64,000 nucleotides of DNA. It comes from Paractinoplanes toevensis (GTDB taxonomy: Bacteria; Actinomycetota; Actinomycetes; Mycobacteriales; Micromonosporaceae). Of the stretch, positions 55,875-63,898 are shown piece after piece. Position 1 is the stretch's first letter; every line of letters starts with the position of its first letter. The notes beneath the pieces are model-generated. The model made no database searches. It saw only the letters and a program-made list of their open reading frames with translations, and was not told where the DNA came from. The stretch is taken from the NCBI RefSeq assembly GCF_018332695.1, contig NZ_BOQN01000003.1, positions 62,001-126,000 of the forward strand, read 5' to 3'. The position numbers were made by a program, and so were the translations under genes.

Positions 55875-56915
55875 TCAGGCGGGCGACGAGTCCCGGATCA
55901 CCAGCGTGGTGGGCACGGTGATCGAGAGGGGCGTACGCCCGTTGATGACGTCCGTGAGGAGACGGACCATCTCTTCGCTGATCCGGTCCAGGGGATGCCG
56001 GACCGTGGTGAGGGACGGGTCGAGCGTGGCCGCCAGACCCGAGTCGTCGAAGCCGACCACCCGCACGTCGCCGGGCACGTCCTTACCGGCCTCGCGCAGC
56101 ACCGGCAGCGCGCCGGCGGCCATCGCGTCCGAGGCGGCGAACACCGCGTCCAGGTCGGGGGCCTGGTCGAGGAGTTGCCGCATGGCGGCGGCGCCGCTGG
56201 CCCGGCCCCAGTCACCGGGCACGATCCGGGCCGGCTCGACCGGCAGGCCGTGCGCGAACAGGGCATCGGTGTAGCCCTGGAGCCGGTCGACGCCGCCGAC
56301 CATGTCCTGCGGTCCGGTGATCGTGGCGATCCGCGTGCAGCCTTTCGAGATCAGATGCTCGACGGCCGAGCGGCCGCCGGAGCGGTCGTCGGCCATCACC
56401 GAGCTGATCTGCTGCTCGTAGCCGAGGACCCGGCCGCACGCGACGATCGGCACCTCGGCCTGCACCAGGTGGCTGAGCAGCGGGTCACCGGAGTGCGGCG
56501 ACACCAGCAGCACCCCGTCGACGTGCCCGCCGGACAGGTAGGCGGTGGTGCGGTTCCGCTCCTCCGGGGTCGACGCGATCATCAGGATCAGCGTCAGTTC
56601 CCGGTCGGAGAGGGCCTGGGCGACCCCGCGCAGCAGCACCGAGAAGTTGGGGTCCTCGAAGAGCAGGTGCTGCGGCTCGGTGAGCAGGAACGCGATCGAC
56701 CCGGACTTGCCGGTGGCCAGCGAGCGGGCGTGCGGGTTCGCCGTGTAACCGGTCCGGGCGATGGCCTCCCGCACGGTGCGGACGGCTTCGGGGCTGACCC
56801 ATTCCCGGCCGTTCAGAACCCGGGAGACGGTGGCGTAGGAGACCCCGGCCTCGCGCGCCACGTCGCGGATGGTGGGCCGCTTTCGCACGTTCGGGACTAT
56901 AGACTGCGCCATCAC
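55875..56915 (-). CDS. LacI family regulator of the galactan operon
   Basis: A 346-residue LacI/GalR repressor. The helix-turn-helix TIRDVAREAGVSYATVSRVL is followed by the hinge helix region (NPHARSL) and a periplasmic-binding-like sensor domain (VDGVLLVSPHSGDPL ... VRVVGFDDSGLAATLDPSLT). GTG 56915 overlaps the permease stop; ATG 56912 is the alternative. Encoded within the transport operon, it most likely represses both divergent units by binding the two identical 19-bp sites at 60209-60227 and 60299-60317, with a galactoside as inducer. This assignment is inference from position. Confidence 0.88.
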   Translation of the reverse strand: MMAQSIVPNVRKRPTIRDVAREAGVSYATVSRVLNGREWVSPEAVRTVREAIARTGYTANPHARSLATGKSGSIAFLLTEPQHLLFEDPNFSVLLRGVAQALSDRELTLILMIASTPEERNRTTAYLSGGHVDGVLLVSPHSGDPLLSHLVQAEVPIVACGRVLGYEQQISSVMADDRSGGRSAVEHLISKGCTRIATITGPQDMVGGVDRLQGYTDALFAHGLPVEPARIVPGDWGRASGAAAMRQLLDQAPDLDAVFAASDAMAAGALPVLREAGKDVPGDVRVVGFDDSGLAATLDPSLTTVRHPLDRISEEMVRLLTDVINGRTPLSITVPTTLVIRDSSPA

Positions 56916-57814
56916 GCCTTCACCGCGCCCGCGCCGAGATCCACTCGCCAGTACCGTTGCAGGCCCAGGAAGAGCGCCACCAGCGGGATGATCGAGATGA
57001 GTGCCCCGGTGACCACCGTGATGTACATCGACGGCTGGTTCGCACCCTGGTTCAGCAGGCCGGAGAGGCCCACGGTCAGCGGGTAGAGATGGTCGTCGCC
57101 GAGCATGATGTACGGCAGCATGAAGTTGTTCCAGATCGCCACGAACTGGAAGAGGAAGACCGTGACCAGGCCGGACTTCATCATCGGCAGCACCACCCGG
57201 CCGAAGGTGCGCCAGTCGCCGGCGCCGTCGATCCGGGCCGCCTCCAGCACCTCGGTCGGAACGGTCGCGGCCGCGAAGATCCGGGACAGATAGATCCCGT
57301 ACGGGGAGATCATGCTGGGCAGCAGCACCGACCAGTACGTGTTGGTCAGCCCGACCTTGGCCAGCAGCAGGTACTGCGGGATGGCCAGGATGACGCCCGG
57401 CACCAGCACGCCGGCCAGGATCACGTTGAACACGAACCTCTTGCCCGGGAAGTCGTACTTGGCCAGCGCGAAGCCGGACATCGCCGAGACCAGGGTGGAG
57501 ACGGCCGCGCCGACCCCGGCGTACAGGGCGGTGTTGGCCATCCAGCGCCAGTACAGGCCGTTCCGGTAGGCGAACAGGTCGCCGATGTTGTCGAACAGGT
57601 GGGTGCTGGGCGCCAGGGTGAACGTGGAGAACAGCTCGCCGGAGCTCTTGGTCGAGGCGATCAGCACCCAGAGCACCGGGAACAGGCAGTACACGGCGCC
57701 GAGCAGCAACAGGACGGTGGCCAGGGTGCTGTTCTTGCGGTTGCCCCGGCGGTTCTTCTTGTCCGGAAGGGCGGCGGTGACCGGCACCGCCGGGAGGGCA
57801 GTCGAGACGGTCAT
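56912..57814 (-). CDS. Carbohydrate ABC transporter permease (MalG-type)
   Basis: A 300-residue inner-membrane permease with six hydrophobic segments and the cytoplasmic EAA loop EAARIDGAGDWRTFGRVVLP, which contacts the ATPase. It pairs with the MalF-type permease encoded just upstream. Its ATG follows the stop of that gene by two bases, and AGGAGG is embedded in the preceding 3' end. The ATPase is not encoded here; such CUT1 systems often use a shared MsiK-type ATPase elsewhere in the genome. The cluster context suggests galacto-oligosaccharide import. Confidence 0.93.
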   Translation of the reverse strand: MTVSTALPAVPVTAALPDKKNRRGNRKNSTLATVLLLLGAVYCLFPVLWVLIASTKSSGELFSTFTLAPSTHLFDNIGDLFAYRNGLYWRWMANTALYAGVGAAVSTLVSAMSGFALAKYDFPGKRFVFNVILAGVLVPGVILAIPQYLLLAKVGLTNTYWSVLLPSMISPYGIYLSRIFAAATVPTEVLEAARIDGAGDWRTFGRVVLPMMKSGLVTVFLFQFVAIWNNFMLPYIMLGDDHLYPLTVGLSGLLNQGANQPSMYITVVTGALISIIPLVALFLGLQRYWRVDLGAGAVKA

Positions 57815-58824: not shown

Positions 58825-60132
58825 TCAGCCGGCGACCTTGAAGCCGGTGTTCTTCATGTCGTCGACCGTGGTCTGCTGCATCGTGGTCAGCGCGGCCGGG
58901 AAGTCGGCGGCCTTCTTCGAGGCGGCCGCCTTGCCGAAGGCGTCGTTGTAGGCGGAGTAGGCCACGTTGACGTTCGGCCCGTACGTGAACGGCTTGGTGA
59001 TCTTGGCGGCCTCGGCCGCGACCGTGTAGAAGTCGCTCTGGTTCGACAGGAACGCCGGGGGCGCGGTCAGCGCGGCGCCCGAGTCGACGCTGGCCGGGTA
59101 GACGTTGGCCGTGCCGGCCAGGGCCTTGATGCCGGCCGGGTCGGTGTTGAGCCAGGCGATGAACTGCGCGGCCTGCTCCTTGTGCTTGCTCTGGGTGGTG
59201 ACGCTGGTGGCCGAGCCGCCCCAGTTGCCGTTGGCCGGTGACGCCGCGTCCCACTGCGGGAGCAGAGCGGCCTTCCACTTGCCCTTGGTGCTCGCCGCGT
59301 TGCCCTCGAGGACGCCGGGACCCCACACCGAGCTGGTCCAGCCGACCTGGGTGCCGTCGTTGAGGGCCGCGTTCCACTCCGGGGTGTACATCGGCTTGTT
59401 GTCGATGACGCCCTCCTGCACCAGGCCGCCCCAGTAGGTGGCGACCTTCTGGGTGGCGGCGTCGTTGATCGCGACCGACCAGGTGTCCCCGTTGATGCCC
59501 CACCAGGAGGCGCCCGCCTGCTGGGAGAGGCCGGCGAACCAGCCCGCGTCGGTGGCCGAGAACGTGCCGAGGTACTGCTTCTTGTTCGCGGCGTGGATCT
59601 TGCGGGCCGCCGCCGCGTAGTCGTCCCAGGTCTTCGGGGCCTGGAGGCCGAGCTTCTCGAAGACGTCGGTGCGGTAGTAGAACATCATCGGGCCGGAGTC
59701 CTGCGGGACGCCGTAGAGGGCCTCGCCGCCGAGGGTGACGGCGTTCCAGGCCGACTCCGGGAACTTCGCCTTGAGGCTGCCGGCCTCCTTGTTGATGTCG
59801 GCGAGCGCGTTGGCCGAGACCAGGGTGGGCATCTTCTGGTACTCGGCCTGCATCACGTCGGGGGCGCCGCTGCCGGCCTTGATCGCGGTGAGCAGCTTGG
59901 TGACGGCGGGGTCGCCCCCGTCCTGCTTGTTGACGGTGACGTGGATGTCGGGGTGGGTGGTGTTCCAGCCCTCGACGACCTTGTCCATGTTCGGCGCCCA
60001 GGTCCAGTAGGTCAGTTCGACCTTCTCGCCGGGCTTGGTGGCGGTGGAGCCACTGTCGCTGTCGTCGGAGCTGGAGCAGGCACCGGTCATCAAAAGGGCG
60101 GCGGCGAGAACGCCTGCGAATGTCTTCTTCAT
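58825..60132 (-). CDS. Carbohydrate ABC transporter substrate-binding lipoprotein (GanS-like)
   Basis: A 435-residue extracellular solute-binding protein of family 1. The signal peptide MKKTFAGVLAAALLMTGAC ends in the lipobox MTGAC, followed by a Ser/Asp linker. The mature protein starts with VELTYWTWAPNMDKVVEGWN and contains aromatic residues typical of oligosaccharide binding. ATG 60132 is set by GAGGAGG four bases upstream; the frame is open further upstream without coding-like sequence. It is the first gene of the leftward operon under the divergent promoter with two LacI-type operators. By context it binds beta-1,4-galacto-oligosaccharides released by the GH53 enzyme. Confidence 0.9.
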   Translation of the reverse strand: MKKTFAGVLAAALLMTGACSSSDDSDSGSTATKPGEKVELTYWTWAPNMDKVVEGWNTTHPDIHVTVNKQDGGDPAVTKLLTAIKAGSGAPDVMQAEYQKMPTLVSANALADINKEAGSLKAKFPESAWNAVTLGGEALYGVPQDSGPMMFYYRTDVFEKLGLQAPKTWDDYAAAARKIHAANKKQYLGTFSATDAGWFAGLSQQAGASWWGINGDTWSVAINDAATQKVATYWGGLVQEGVIDNKPMYTPEWNAALNDGTQVGWTSSVWGPGVLEGNAASTKGKWKAALLPQWDAASPANGNWGGSATSVTTQSKHKEQAAQFIAWLNTDPAGIKALAGTANVYPASVDSGAALTAPPAFLSNQSDFYTVAAEAAKITKPFTYGPNVNVAYSAYNDAFGKAAASKKAADFPAALTTMQQTTVDDMKNTGFKVAG

Positions 60133-60208: not shown

Positions 60209-60227
60209 ACCTGTGACCGGTTACAGT
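60209..60227. promoter_or_regulatory. LacI-type operator O1 (leftward promoter)
   Basis: ACCTGTGACCGGTTACAGT contains CTGTgACCGGTtACAG, a 16-bp palindrome with one mismatched pair. It overlaps the expected -10 region of the leftward promoter whose -35 (TTGACA on the minus strand) is at 60246-60251. An identical copy is at 60299-60317. Confidence 0.75.
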
Positions 60228-60298: not shown

Positions 60299-60317
60299 AC
60301 CTGTGACCGGTTACAGT
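60299..60317. promoter_or_regulatory. LacI-type operator O2 (rightward promoter)
   Basis: An exact copy of the 19-bp O1 sequence, 90 bp away, located between the expected start point of the rightward promoter and the GTG at 60365. The pair suggests coordinated repression of both divergent units, possibly through a DNA loop. Confidence 0.75.
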
Positions 60318-60364: not shown

Positions 60365-63300
60365 GTGCCTACCGAACCCCTCGCCGTTCGGCACCATCCC
60401 TGGTCAGAGCCGCTGCGCCGGCCACGGATGAGCAATGACGAGGACGCGCGCCTCGGGGTCTCGCTGACCAGCCGGTACCTCACCCGCGACGGCGTCCCGG
60501 TCATCCCCGTCTCCGGGGAGATCCACTACAGTCGCGTCCCGCGCGCCCGCTGGCGGCAGCGCCTGCGGCAGATGCGCGCCGGTGGCGTCACCGTCGCGGC
60601 CAGCTACGTCTTCTGGCTGCACCACGTCGAACACCGGGACGCGCCGCGCTTCGACGGCAACCTCGACGTGGCCGCGTTCGTCGACCTCGCCGTCGCCGAG
60701 GGGCTCGACGTCATCCTGCGGCTCGGCCCCTGGTGCCACGGCGAGACCCGCAACGGCGGCTTCCCCGACTGGGTCCAGCAGGCGCCGGTGCGGCACCGCA
60801 CCGACGACCCCGGCTACCTGGCGATGGTGCGCGAGTGGTTCGGGCAGATCGCTGCTGCTCTGGACGGGCGCTGCGGCCCGGACGGCCCGGTGATCGGCAT
60901 CCAGATCGAGAACGAGCTGTACGACCAGCCCGGCCACCTCCGCACGCTCAAACGCCTCGCCCGCGAGGCCGGAATGTCCGCGCCGCTGTGGACCGCCACC
61001 GCCTGGGGCGGCGCCGACCTGCCCGCCGAGGAGCTGCTCCCGCTCTACGGTGGTTACGGCGACGGCTTCTGGGTCGACTCCGACGCGGCCTGGGACCCCA
61101 CGTTCCGCGACCACTACTTCTTCTCGCACGTCTGGGACGACCCCGGCATCGGCGCCGACGTCCGCCGCATGCAACTGCAGGGGATGCGGGCCGACACCGC
61201 CCATCCGCGTACGCCGTCGGAGCTCTTCCCGCCGGCGACCTGCGAGCTCGGCGGCGGCATGGCCACCGCCTACCATCGCCGGCCGAGGCCGGCCGCCCTC
61301 GACGTCGCGGCCATCGCCCATTGCAAGATCGGCAACGGGTCGGCCTGGCAGGGCTATTACATGTACGCCGGGGGAACGAACCCACCCGGCGGTCTGCAGG
61401 AGTCGCACGACACCGGATATCCGAACGACCTGCCACAGCTCGGCTACGACTTCGGCGCGCCGATCGGCGAGGCCGGGCTGCCGGCCGAGAGCCACGCCCT
61501 GCTCCGGCAGCAGCACGCGTTCCTCGCCGCGTTCGGGTCGTCGCTCGCGGAAATGCCGTCCAGCCTGCCCGAGGTGCGGCCCAGCGGCGTCGAGGACTCC
61601 GGCACGCTGCGCTGGGCGCTGCGCAGCGACGGCGAGAGCGGTTTCCTGTTCATCGCCTGGCATCAGCCGCACGTGCCGCTGGACCTCTACCGCGGTGCCC
61701 GGTTCCGGGTGGAACTTTCCGGCTCCGAAATCGTTCTTCCCTCGGAGCCGATCGACATTCCGGCCGGCACCCTGGCTCGCTGGCCGCTGGCGCTCACTCT
61801 CGGTGGCGTGCGGCTCGACTGGGCCACCGCGTCCGCGCTTACCGTGCTGCCGGGCGCGGTAGCAACGCTCGTGCTGGTCGCCGAGGCCGGTATCGAGGTC
61901 ACCTACTCGGTCGGCGGTTCCCCCGCCACCGTTGAGCCGGGCCTGTCGCCGGTCCGGCTCCGGCATGACGGCGGCGAGCTGGACCTCCTGGTCCTGCCCG
62001 CCGCCGTCGCCGCCGAGGTGTGGGTCTGCGAGGCCGGACCGGCCCGTCGCTTGCTGCTGTCTGCGGCCGAGTTGACCTGGGGCCCCGACGGGCGGATCGA
62101 ATCCACCGGGCCGGGCGTCCGCATGTACGACCCGGCCGGCCGGGCGTTCGCCGATCTCCCGCTGGAGAGCGCGTCGGCCACCGAGCGTTCGTTCTCCGAG
62201 CGTTCGTTCTCCGAACGTAAGAGCGACGAACGTTCGTCCGCCGAACGTAAGGACGACGAACGTTCGTCTCACGAACGTAAGGGCGACGAACGTAAGGGCG
62301 ACGAACGTTCGTTGGACGAACGTAAGGGCGACTTACGTTTTTCGGGGGGCGGGGCCGGGACTGTCGGTGCGGAGCTTGTGCGGCAGGCCGGTGGGGCCGT
62401 TCCGGTGGGTTACGAGAAGTTCGACGGGCGGCAGTCGGCGCCCTCGCCGGCGGTGTTCGAGGAGCTTGCGGCCGTCTACCGGGTGGTGCTGCCGGCCTGG
62501 GTCGCGGAGCCGGGGGCCGACGGCTACCTGCGGATCCGCTGGGCCGGGGACGTCGGGCAACTGCGGGTCGACGGGCGGGTGGCCACCGACCGGTTCTGGG
62601 ACGGCTCGGAGTGGATCGTCAGCCTGCGCGACGCGGGAGTCCGGGACGGTTCCGAGGTCACGCTGCACCTGCTGCCGCTGGCGGTCGGGTCGACGATCTC
62701 GCTGCCCGAGGATGCCGGGGACCGCCTGGCCGCCGCGGACGGGCAGCTTCTCGCGATCGACTCGCTCGCGGTCGAGGGGCGGACGGTCTGGCGGGAGCCG
62801 CACCGGGTTCGGCGCACGTCGCGGTCGATGGCCGACGGGCGGGAGATCATCTACTTCGACGACACCGAGCCGTACGGGGCTCGCGACGCCGTCGACCGGC
62901 GGCCGCTGCCGGCCGCCGCGGACGCGCCCGGGCCGGAGATGCGCTACGACCCGCTCACCGGGGAGTGGATCGCGATCGCCGCGCACCGCAACGACCGGAC
63001 CTTCCTGCCCGCGGCCGACCAGGATCCGCTCGCGCCCACCACGCCGGGCGGCTTCCCCACCGAGATCGCGGAAGCCTCCTACGACGTGGTGGTGTTCGAG
63101 AACCGGTTCCCGTCGTTCTCGCCCCGGGTGTCGGGCGATCCGGAACTCGTGGACGGAAGTTCACTGTGGCCGGTGCGGCCGGCTGCCGGGCGTACCGAAG
63201 TGGTCTGCTTCTCCTCGGCCCCGAAGGGGTCGTTCGGCAGCCTGAGCCCGCACCGGGCCCGGACCGTGATCGAAGCCTGGGCCGACCGGACCGCCGACCT

Positions 63301-63898
63301 CGGCTCGCGTGACGACGTCGAGTACGTCTTCCCGTTCGAGAACCGCGGCCGCGAGATCGGGGTGACGCTGCCGCATCCGCACGGGCAGATCTACGCGTTC
63401 CCGTTCGTGCCGCCGAAAGCCGCCCGGATGATCGAGATGGCGTCCGGGCACACCGGCGGGAACCTGTTCCGGGACATCCTCGACGCCGAGCGGCGGGCCG
63501 GGACGCGGGTCGTCGTGGAGTCGGCGCACTGGACCGCCTACGTCCCGGCGGCCTCGCGGTGGCCGGTCGAGGTGCACCTGGCGCCGCACCGGGACGTGCC
63601 CGACCTGCCGGCGCTGAACTCGGCCGAGCGCGACGATCTGGCACTGATCTACCTGGACGTGCTGGGCCGCTTCGACCGCTACTTCCCGGGGGTGCGCGAA
63701 ACGCCGTACATCTCGGGGGTCTTCCAGGCCCCGAGTCGCACCCACCGCGACCTTTTCCGCCTGCATCTGCAGGTTTTCTCGATTCTGCGGGCGCCCGGGA
63801 AACTGAAGTACCTGGCCGGGGTGGAATCGGCGATGGGCTCGTGGATCAGCGACACGACACCCGAGAAGGCCGCCGCCCGCCTTCGTTCGCTGGGCTGA
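60365..63898 (+). CDS. Fusion of GH35 beta-galactosidase and galactose-1-phosphate uridylyltransferase (GalT)
   Basis: One open frame of 1177 residues without a signal peptide. Residues 1 to about 810 are a glycoside hydrolase family 35 beta-galactosidase: GEIHYSRVPRARW, the acid/base Glu184 in IQIENELYDQ, a likely nucleophile Glu294 in TCELGGGM, and C-terminal beta domains. A charged pentapeptide repeat (E-R-[SK]-x-x, ten units, residues 607-656) interrupts the latter. From about residue 815 to the end is a complete GalT: DGREIIYFDD, YDPLTGEWIAIAAHR, FENRFPSF and the active-site HPHGQ at 1004-1008. GTG 60365 has GAGGAG upstream. The enzyme would split imported galactosides, and after phosphorylation by a GalK encoded elsewhere convert galactose-1-P to UDP-galactose. 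No stop separates the domains. Confidence 0.9.
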   Translation: MPTEPLAVRHHPWSEPLRRPRMSNDEDARLGVSLTSRYLTRDGVPVIPVSGEIHYSRVPRARWRQRLRQMRAGGVTVAASYVFWLHHVEHRDAPRFDGNLDVAAFVDLAVAEGLDVILRLGPWCHGETRNGGFPDWVQQAPVRHRTDDPGYLAMVREWFGQIAAALDGRCGPDGPVIGIQIENELYDQPGHLRTLKRLAREAGMSAPLWTATAWGGADLPAEELLPLYGGYGDGFWVDSDAAWDPTFRDHYFFSHVWDDPGIGADVRRMQLQGMRADTAHPRTPSELFPPATCELGGGMATAYHRRPRPAALDVAAIAHCKIGNGSAWQGYYMYAGGTNPPGGLQESHDTGYPNDLPQLGYDFGAPIGEAGLPAESHALLRQQHAFLAAFGSSLAEMPSSLPEVRPSGVEDSGTLRWALRSDGESGFLFIAWHQPHVPLDLYRGARFRVELSGSEIVLPSEPIDIPAGTLARWPLALTLGGVRLDWATASALTVLPGAVATLVLVAEAGIEVTYSVGGSPATVEPGLSPVRLRHDGGELDLLVLPAAVAAEVWVCEAGPARRLLLSAAELTWGPDGRIESTGPGVRMYDPAGRAFADLPLESASATERSFSERSFSERKSDERSSAERKDDERSSHERKGDERKGDERSLDERKGDLRFSGGGAGTVGAELVRQAGGAVPVGYEKFDGRQSAPSPAVFEELAAVYRVVLPAWVAEPGADGYLRIRWAGDVGQLRVDGRVATDRFWDGSEWIVSLRDAGVRDGSEVTLHLLPLAVGSTISLPEDAGDRLAAADGQLLAIDSLAVEGRTVWREPHRVRRTSRSMADGREIIYFDDTEPYGARDAVDRRPLPAAADAPGPEMRYDPLTGEWIAIAAHRNDRTFLPAADQDPLAPTTPGGFPTEIAEASYDVVVFENRFPSFSPRVSGDPELVDGSSLWPVRPAAGRTEVVCFSSAPKGSFGSLSPHRARTVIEAWADRTADLGSRDDVEYVFPFENRGREIGVTLPHPHGQIYAFPFVPPKAARMIEMASGHTGGNLFRDILDAERRAGTRVVVESAHWTAYVPAASRWPVEVHLAPHRDVPDLPALNSAERDDLALIYLDVLGRFDRYFPGVRETPYISGVFQAPSRTHRDLFRLHLQVFSILRAPGKLKYLAGVESAMGSWISDTTPEKAAARLRSLG
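62183..62332 (+). repeat. Ten in-phase 15-bp minisatellite units inside the fusion gene
   Basis: Ten consecutive 15-bp units, each beginning GAACGT or GAGCGT, fill 62183-62332 exactly. They alternate between GAACGTTCG-type (encoding ERSxx) and GAACGTAAG-type (encoding ERKxx) units. The GAACGTTC core is itself a palindrome. The unit preserves the reading frame. Confidence 0.92.

What the first reader, a model, noticed from the sequence alone, without database searches (positions are those of the whole stretch)
60365..63898. Beta-galactosidase (GH35) and GalT encoded as one polypeptide
The frame runs without a stop from a full GH35 enzyme (Glu184 and Glu294 motifs) into a full GalT (HPHGQ at 1004-1008). 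These normally separate enzymes act two steps apart in galactose use, with only GalK between them. A fusion under the same LacI-type operators as a galactan importer would link hydrolysis to Leloir processing. I know of no described GH35-GalT fusion, but I cannot search.
Basis: partly seen in the sequence, partly recalled or inferred. Interest (0 to 1): 0.8.

Follow-up and report, generated by a model that had tools for sequence, protein, structure and literature searches.

The report
Galactosidase and GalT in one protein
A soil actinobacterium encodes one long protein that joins a beta-galactosidase for digesting plant galactan to GalT, an enzyme from a later step of galactose breakdown, and seventeen related genomes carry the same fusion, so it is a real, conserved gene and not a sequencing error.

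Summary
Window 60365-63898 is one open frame of 1177 aa: GH35 beta-galactosidase, a variable linker, a jelly-roll-like domain, then a complete GalT. It is not an assembly error: the same fusion occurs in 18 genomes, 16 of the 54 Actinoplanes genomes with this GH35 gene (67 searched) plus two Micromonospora. The fused GalT is under purifying selection and keeps HPHGQ; the GH35 and GalT trees share 12 of 15 splits, so the fusion most likely arose once and moves as a unit. GalT has been lost repeatedly: four relatives carry broken or split GalT, and one carries a free copy whose start overlaps the stop of a GH42 beta-galactosidase gene. The locus (GH53 galactanase, LacI regulator, ABC importer, paired operator-like palindromes) is a galactan-utilisation cluster. 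Most likely a bifunctional cytoplasmic enzyme that ties extra GalT to galactan flux, beside the genome's ordinary GalT. Three zinc ligands of E. coli GalT are missing, as in many other actinobacterial GalTs. My paper searches found no described GH35-GalT fusion. Activity, polypeptide integrity and channelling are untested.

The parts
60365..63898 (+). GH35-GalT fusion gene, 1177 aa
   Evidence: one open frame; same frame in 17 other genomes
60479..61516 (+). GH35 catalytic domain (aa 39-384); Glu184 and Glu294
   Evidence: Pfam PF01301; motifs
62180..62344 (+). variable linker (aa 606-660) built of a 15-bp minisatellite (ERxxD-type repeats)
62357..62800 (+). C-terminal domain of the GH35 part (aa 665-812), jelly-roll-like; ends at the fusion point
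   Evidence: conserved in the GH35 orthologues; mostly strands in a medium-confidence model; no Pfam family over its cut-off. The name jelly-roll-like is inference
62801..63895 (+). GalT domain (aa 813-1177): HPHGQ 1004-1008; zinc-ligand positions are D887, A890 and P953
   Evidence: model matches PDB 6k5z, TMt 0.88
60212..60225 (.). operator-like palindrome TGTGACCGGTTACA, copy 1
60302..60315 (.). operator-like palindrome, copy 2, 90 bp from copy 1
58825..60132 (-). extracellular solute-binding protein of the ABC importer
   Evidence: PF01547
57817..58773 (-). ABC permease A
   Evidence: open frame; conserved neighbour; type by reading and position, not scanned
56912..57814 (-). ABC permease B
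   Evidence: open frame; conserved neighbour; type by reading and position, not scanned
55875..56915 (-). LacI-family regulator
   Evidence: PF00356, PF13377
54714..55817 (-). GH53 endo-beta-1,4-galactanase with a signal-peptide-like N-terminus
   Evidence: PF07745 E 7e-104; signal peptide by reading

Best explanation
A bifunctional cytoplasmic enzyme of a galactan-utilisation cluster. Secreted GH53 cuts beta-1,4-galactan; the ABC importer brings galacto-oligosaccharides in; the GH35 domain frees galactose; a galactokinase encoded elsewhere makes galactose-1-phosphate; the fused GalT domain converts it with UDP-glucose to UDP-galactose and glucose-1-phosphate. Fusing GalT to the galactosidase behind one pair of LacI-type operators supplies extra GalT in fixed proportion to galactan breakdown, which should keep toxic galactose-1-phosphate low. 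Human GALT is an obligate dimer, so the domain may also dimerise the galactosidase. Shown: one frame, conserved junction, domain identity, catalytic motif, purifying selection, shared history of the two halves, conserved cluster and palindromes. Inferred: both activities, an uncleaved polypeptide, operator function, cytoplasmic place (no signal peptide seen by reading), and the benefit.
For: Same in-frame fusion in 16 of 54 genus GH35 loci and in two Micromonospora. GalT dN/dS by NG86 is 0.11-0.24 against 0.19-0.37 for the GH35 part, lower in 9 of 9 pairs (YN00 ran in only 3 of the 9, see evidence against). GH35 and GalT trees of the 18 fusions share 12 of 15 splits; shuffled mean 0.245, maximum 3 of 200 shuffles. 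The 18 fused GalTs, G031's split one and G053's free one form one clade, 100/99. HPHGQ intact in 102 of 102 GalT rows. No conserved ribosome site before the GalT start region. In the 54 genus loci: two palindromes in 54, binding protein and permease A in 54, LacI and permease B in 53, GH53 in 52 (G059 is cut by its contig end). In G053 the same GalT is separate but its ATG overlaps the stop of a GH42 beta-galactosidase, a second tie to a beta-galactosidase. Similar logic in the B. subtilis gan operon: LacI-like GanR on paired inverted repeats, GanA inhibited by galactose (PMC5472308: abstract and passages).
Against: No GalT follows GH35 in 34 of 54 genus loci, and it is broken or split in 4, so it is dispensable. 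The genome has a second, ordinary GalT. The two reactions are not consecutive. By YN00 the GalT value was lower than GH35 in 2 of 3 pairs and slightly higher in one (0.041 against 0.038, G037-G027). Three of four zinc ligands of E. coli GalT are missing; PMC5081055 says this site matters for E. coli catalysis (passages). The cluster is not fully kept in the two Micromonospora: no GH53 within reach in either, and in G241 only LacI of the five neighbours. No galactokinase was found in this assembly, though the 15-kb region that holds it in the nearest relative has no close match as a whole. No expression or enzyme data.
Confidence: 0.75

Rival explanations
1. GalT is a passenger: the fusion is an accident in decay, and only GH35 matters.
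For: Fused and unfused are interleaved on the GH35 tree: at least 12 changes, 10 forced by well-supported branches, 18 losses if there was one gain. Broken or split GalT in G031, G038, G047, G061. A redundant GalT elsewhere.
Against: Where the frame is kept, GalT is under purifying selection (NG86 0.11-0.24 in 9 pairs) and HPHGQ is intact. G053 has a free, intact GalT of this clade beside another beta-galactosidase.
Confidence: 0.1
2. The frame is open but two products are made, by internal initiation at the GalT start or by proteolysis.
For: An in-frame ATG (62828 here) is present in 18 of 18 fusions, with a short AGGA before it in two (G014, G039); an upstream GTG has GGAG before it in two (G064, G014).
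Against: No Shine-Dalgarno-like motif of four or more bases before that ATG in 16 of 18. The residues before it (mostly HRVR[RK]) are conserved too. The variable linker lies inside the GH35 part, not at the GalT joint.
Confidence: 0.12
3. The GalT domain has changed substrate and acts on another sugar phosphate or nucleotide.
For: Missing metal ligands and a separate clade. Below the cut-off of the E. coli-type model NF008724 (169.9 against 448 bits).
Against: 56% identity to the ordinary GalT; over the cut-off of TIGR00209 galT_1; R875, R878, N913, N993, H1006, Q1008, K1148, E1154 invariant in the 29-row alignment (their roles recalled from E. coli GalT, some also named for human GALT in PMC5081055); the same ligands are missing in 36 of the 82 aligned GalTs outside the fused clade.
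Confidence: 0.08
4. A sequencing or assembly error hid a stop codon.
For: Draft genome in 287 contigs.
Against: 17 other genomes show the same frame.
Confidence: 0.01

Closest known systems
Bacillus subtilis gan operon (ganSPQAB, GanR)
   Same: LacI-like repressor on paired inverted repeats, importer, secreted endo-galactanase, beta-galactosidase (PMC5472308, abstract and passages)
   Different: its beta-galactosidase GanA is a separate enzyme without GalT; its family (GH42) is recalled
GalT (EC 2.7.7.12) of E. coli, human and Thermotoga maritima
   Same: fold (model to 6k5z TMt 0.88), HPHGQ, nucleotide-site residues
   Different: fused to a galactosidase; lacks the Cys52, Cys55 and His115 equivalents. 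Human GALT has two of the four ligands replaced and binds no zinc there (PMC5081055, passages)
GalT-GalK single-frame genes in Cellulosimicrobium, Oerskovia and Corynebacterium halotolerans
   Same: GalT joined to another galactose enzyme; seen by motif in five loci
   Different: consecutive steps; no glycoside hydrolase
GH35 genes at the same locus in other Actinoplanes
   Same: same neighbours and palindromes
   Different: end after the jelly-roll-like domain, no GalT
Yeast Gal10 (mutarotase-epimerase), recalled
   Same: fusion of enzymes of galactose metabolism
   Different: different domains; not tested here

Membership tests
GH35 beta-galactosidase | GH35 profile over the cut-off | tested here: met
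   158.2 bits against 27
GH35 beta-galactosidase | two catalytic Glu in place | tested here: inconclusive
   Glu184 aligns with the ENE motif; Glu294 by motif only; model poor there
GalT | both Pfam halves over the cut-off | tested here: met
   109.7 against 22.1 and 53.1 against 29.2 bits
GalT | HPH active site with the uridylylated His, followed by Gln | tested here: met
   H1004, H1006, Q1008; 102 of 102 rows
GalT | NCBIfam TIGR00209 galT_1 over its cut-off | tested here: met
   128.4 against 102.1 bits
GalT | uridylyltransferase activity | not testable with these tools
   no assay
E. coli-type zinc GalT | zinc ligands Cys52, Cys55, His115, His164 | tested here: not met
   only the His164 equivalent is kept
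E. coli-type zinc GalT | NCBIfam NF008724 over its cut-off | tested here: not met
   169.9 against 448 bits
gan-type galactan utilisation cluster | GH53, LacI regulator, ABC importer and beta-galactosidase together | tested here: met
   permeases named by reading and position

The most novel reading that the evidence does not exclude
A zinc-site-free GalT, acquired from outside the family (nearest relative found: Kineococcus), has become a movable catabolic add-on for beta-galactosidases: fused once in frame to GH35 and inherited or exchanged as a unit, lost many times, and once freed and re-coupled by a start-stop overlap to a GH42 galactosidase. The fusion works as a flux-matched unit in which GalT dimerisation also assembles the galactosidase.
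Probability: 0.3. Interest if true: 0.6.

Novelty: new variant of a known kind. Interest (0 to 1): 0.5.

Why it matters
It is a conserved natural fusion of a polysaccharide-degrading enzyme with an enzyme of the Leloir pathway that is not the next step. With relatives that kept, split, broke or lost GalT, it offers a natural series for testing what enzyme fusion is good for: channelling, dose matching, or protection from galactose-1-phosphate. It may also be useful as a one-protein catalyst.

Tried and rejected
Loss of galactokinase in this genome: PF10509 is over its cut-off in 66 of 67 genus genomes but not in G000. I dropped this as a finding: the 15-kb region that holds galK in G064 matches G000 only in three pieces at 68-70% identity (weaker pieces), so a gap in the assembly is more likely.

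Missing metal ligands as a sign of a dead GalT: rejected. In 102 GalT rows the three ligands are all present in 45, all absent in 56 and mixed in 1; the 56 include the 20 rows of the fused clade. Whether the other zinc-less GalTs are the only GalT of their genomes was not checked.

Mobile or viral origin: no close viral relative in one scan with the last 513 aa; no plasmid record covers 80% of the protein.

Structure: the full-length model is poor in the GH35 part (mean pLDDT 59.9, pTM 0.46), as only three GH35 rows could be used; only its GalT part was interpreted. YN00 dN/dS failed in 6 of 9 pairs. Cutting out linkers by pattern failed for most rows and was replaced by an alignment. Of 102 GalT rows, 58 went into the tree. 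Downstream synteny of fused and unfused neighbours gave no clear picture: of 9 pairs, matches were close behind the stop in some, far or absent in others; G037-G038 fits a deletion inside GalT. The relaxed search for GalT remnants found only the four known cases clearly above its reversed-sequence control. The gene neighbours of the Kineococcus GalT were not family-scanned (one search failed); its galactokinase is seen by motif only.

Full report
What is there. Window 60365-63898 on the plus strand is a single open frame of 1177 aa. Pfam finds a GH35 catalytic domain at residues 39-384 and both halves of GalT at 857-1176. TIGR00209 (galT_1) is over its cut-off; the E. coli-type model NF008724 is matched but far below its own. 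Between the two enzymes lies the rest of the GH35 protein: a middle part, a variable linker (606-660) and a conserved jelly-roll-like domain (665-812) that ends where GalT begins. The GTG start has an AGAGGAG motif upstream.

Not an error. The window lies in an Actinoplanes genome. The genus is inferred from named records whose contig lengths equal those of G040 (A. palleronii), G053 (Actinoplanes sp. TBRC 11911) and G241 (Micromonospora sp. KC606). Of 67 genus genomes, 54 have the GH35 orthologue and 13 do not. In 16 of the 54 the frame runs on into a full GalT. In four, GalT is broken or out of frame: G038 keeps only its last part, G047 fragments, G061 has a frameshift inside GalT, and G031 has an intact GalT in another frame. 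In 34 no GalT follows within the stretch held. In a sample of 200 genomes of the order, two of the eight that passed the threshold matched across the junction: the window's own and one of those Micromonospora.

One origin, many losses. The 18 fused GalTs, the split GalT of G031 and the free GalT of G053 form one clade (100/99), with a Kineococcus GalT as nearest relative (100/99); the ordinary GalT of the genus lies elsewhere (58 of 102 rows). Trees of the two halves of the 18 fusions share 12 of 15 splits (shuffled mean 0.245, maximum 3); the three that differ have weak to moderate support. So the halves have been inherited or exchanged as one unit. On the GH35 tree (66 rows, G031, G038, G047, G061 and G053 counted as unfused) the two states are interleaved: at least 12 changes, 10 forced by well-supported branches, or 18 losses if there was one gain. 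The tree cannot tell losses from exchange of the fused gene between species. The broken copies do show that loss has happened.

Under selection. By NG86, dN/dS is 0.11-0.24 for GalT and 0.19-0.37 for the GH35 part (linker included), lower for GalT in 9 of 9 pairs. YN00 ran in 3 pairs: lower for GalT in two, slightly higher in one (0.041 against 0.038). The ordinary GalT gives 0.09 and 0.11 by NG86 in two pairs (all). HPHGQ is intact in 102 of 102 rows.

One polypeptide? An in-frame ATG (62828) is present in all 18 fusions. No Shine-Dalgarno-like motif precedes it in 16 of 18; two have AGGA, and an upstream GTG has GGAG in two. A single product is likely but not proven.

The zinc site. Three of the four zinc ligands of E. 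coli GalT (Cys52, Cys55, His115) are replaced in every fused GalT and in G053's. Across 102 rows the three are all present in 45, all absent in 56 (20 of them the fused clade) and mixed in one. Human GALT has two of the ligands replaced, binds no zinc there and was active in that study (PMC5081055, passages). So their absence does not argue strongly against activity, although the same paper calls the site important in E. coli.

Surroundings. GH53, LacI, two permeases and the binding protein lie upstream on the other strand. In the 54 genus loci the binding protein and permease A are found in 54, LacI and permease B in 53, GH53 in 52 (missing in G021 and in G059, whose contig ends there). The palindrome TGTGACCGGTTACA (two positions free) occurs twice upstream of GH35 in 54 of 54, 88-90 bp apart except 58 in G049, and in G067; once in G090 and in the two Micromonospora. 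The Micromonospora differ: no GH53 in either, and in G241 only LacI of the five neighbours (all). That LacI binds the palindrome is inference; B. subtilis GanR on paired repeats is the model (PMC5472308, abstract and passages).

A second tie. In G053 the GH35 gene is unfused and the same GalT sits in another importer operon, its ATG overlapping the stop codon of a GH42 beta-galactosidase. Of 68 GH42 matches in the genus, 30 became loci with 1.5-kb flanks, and only G053's has GalT. As this GalT nests among the fused ones, the simplest reading is that it left the fusion and was re-coupled to another beta-galactosidase.

How it probably works. See Best explanation. Galactokinase acts between the two activities and is not in the protein, so I favour dose matching and protection from galactose-1-phosphate over channelling. 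Its toxicity is general knowledge of the pathway (only a paper listing was seen). Galactokinase is found in 66 of 67 genus genomes and missing only in this assembly, probably through a gap.

Structure. AlphaFold gave a good GalT part (best match T. maritima GalT 6k5z, TMt 0.88) and a poor GH35 part.

Novelty. Five paper searches combining GH35 or beta-galactosidase, GalT or galactokinase, and fusion terms listed nothing relevant: three gave no paper, two gave five papers unrelated by title and abstract start. The library lacks most subscription papers, and I could not search architecture databases. I call it a new variant of a known kind: known enzymes, a known type of locus, and an architecture I found no report of.

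Noticed in passing
window 62180-62344: A 15-bp minisatellite (ERxxD repeats) expands the GH35 linker in G000 and, by its peptide, in G064; similar 22-base stretches occur on four other contigs of the genome (C49, C66, C76, C85).
   Followed up: partly
L101:4010-7104 (Actinoplanes sp. TBRC 11911): GH42 beta-galactosidase gene overlapping by ATGA with a free fused-type GalT, behind an ABC importer.
   Followed up: yes
L141, L162, L170, L173, L177: GalT and a galactokinase motif in one open frame in Cellulosimicrobium, Oerskovia and Corynebacterium halotolerans: probable GalT-GalK fusions, by motif only.
   Followed up: partly
L102-L178 GalT loci and genus GalTs: Nearly all-or-none loss of the three zinc ligands: 45 with all, 56 with none, 1 mixed, in 102 GalT rows.
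   Followed up: partly
G000 against L185 (G064:C45:41000-56000): A 15-kb region with galK and, by reading, galE and a tryptophanyl-tRNA-synthetase-like gene has no close match in the window's assembly: probably a gap despite 100% completeness.
   Followed up: partly
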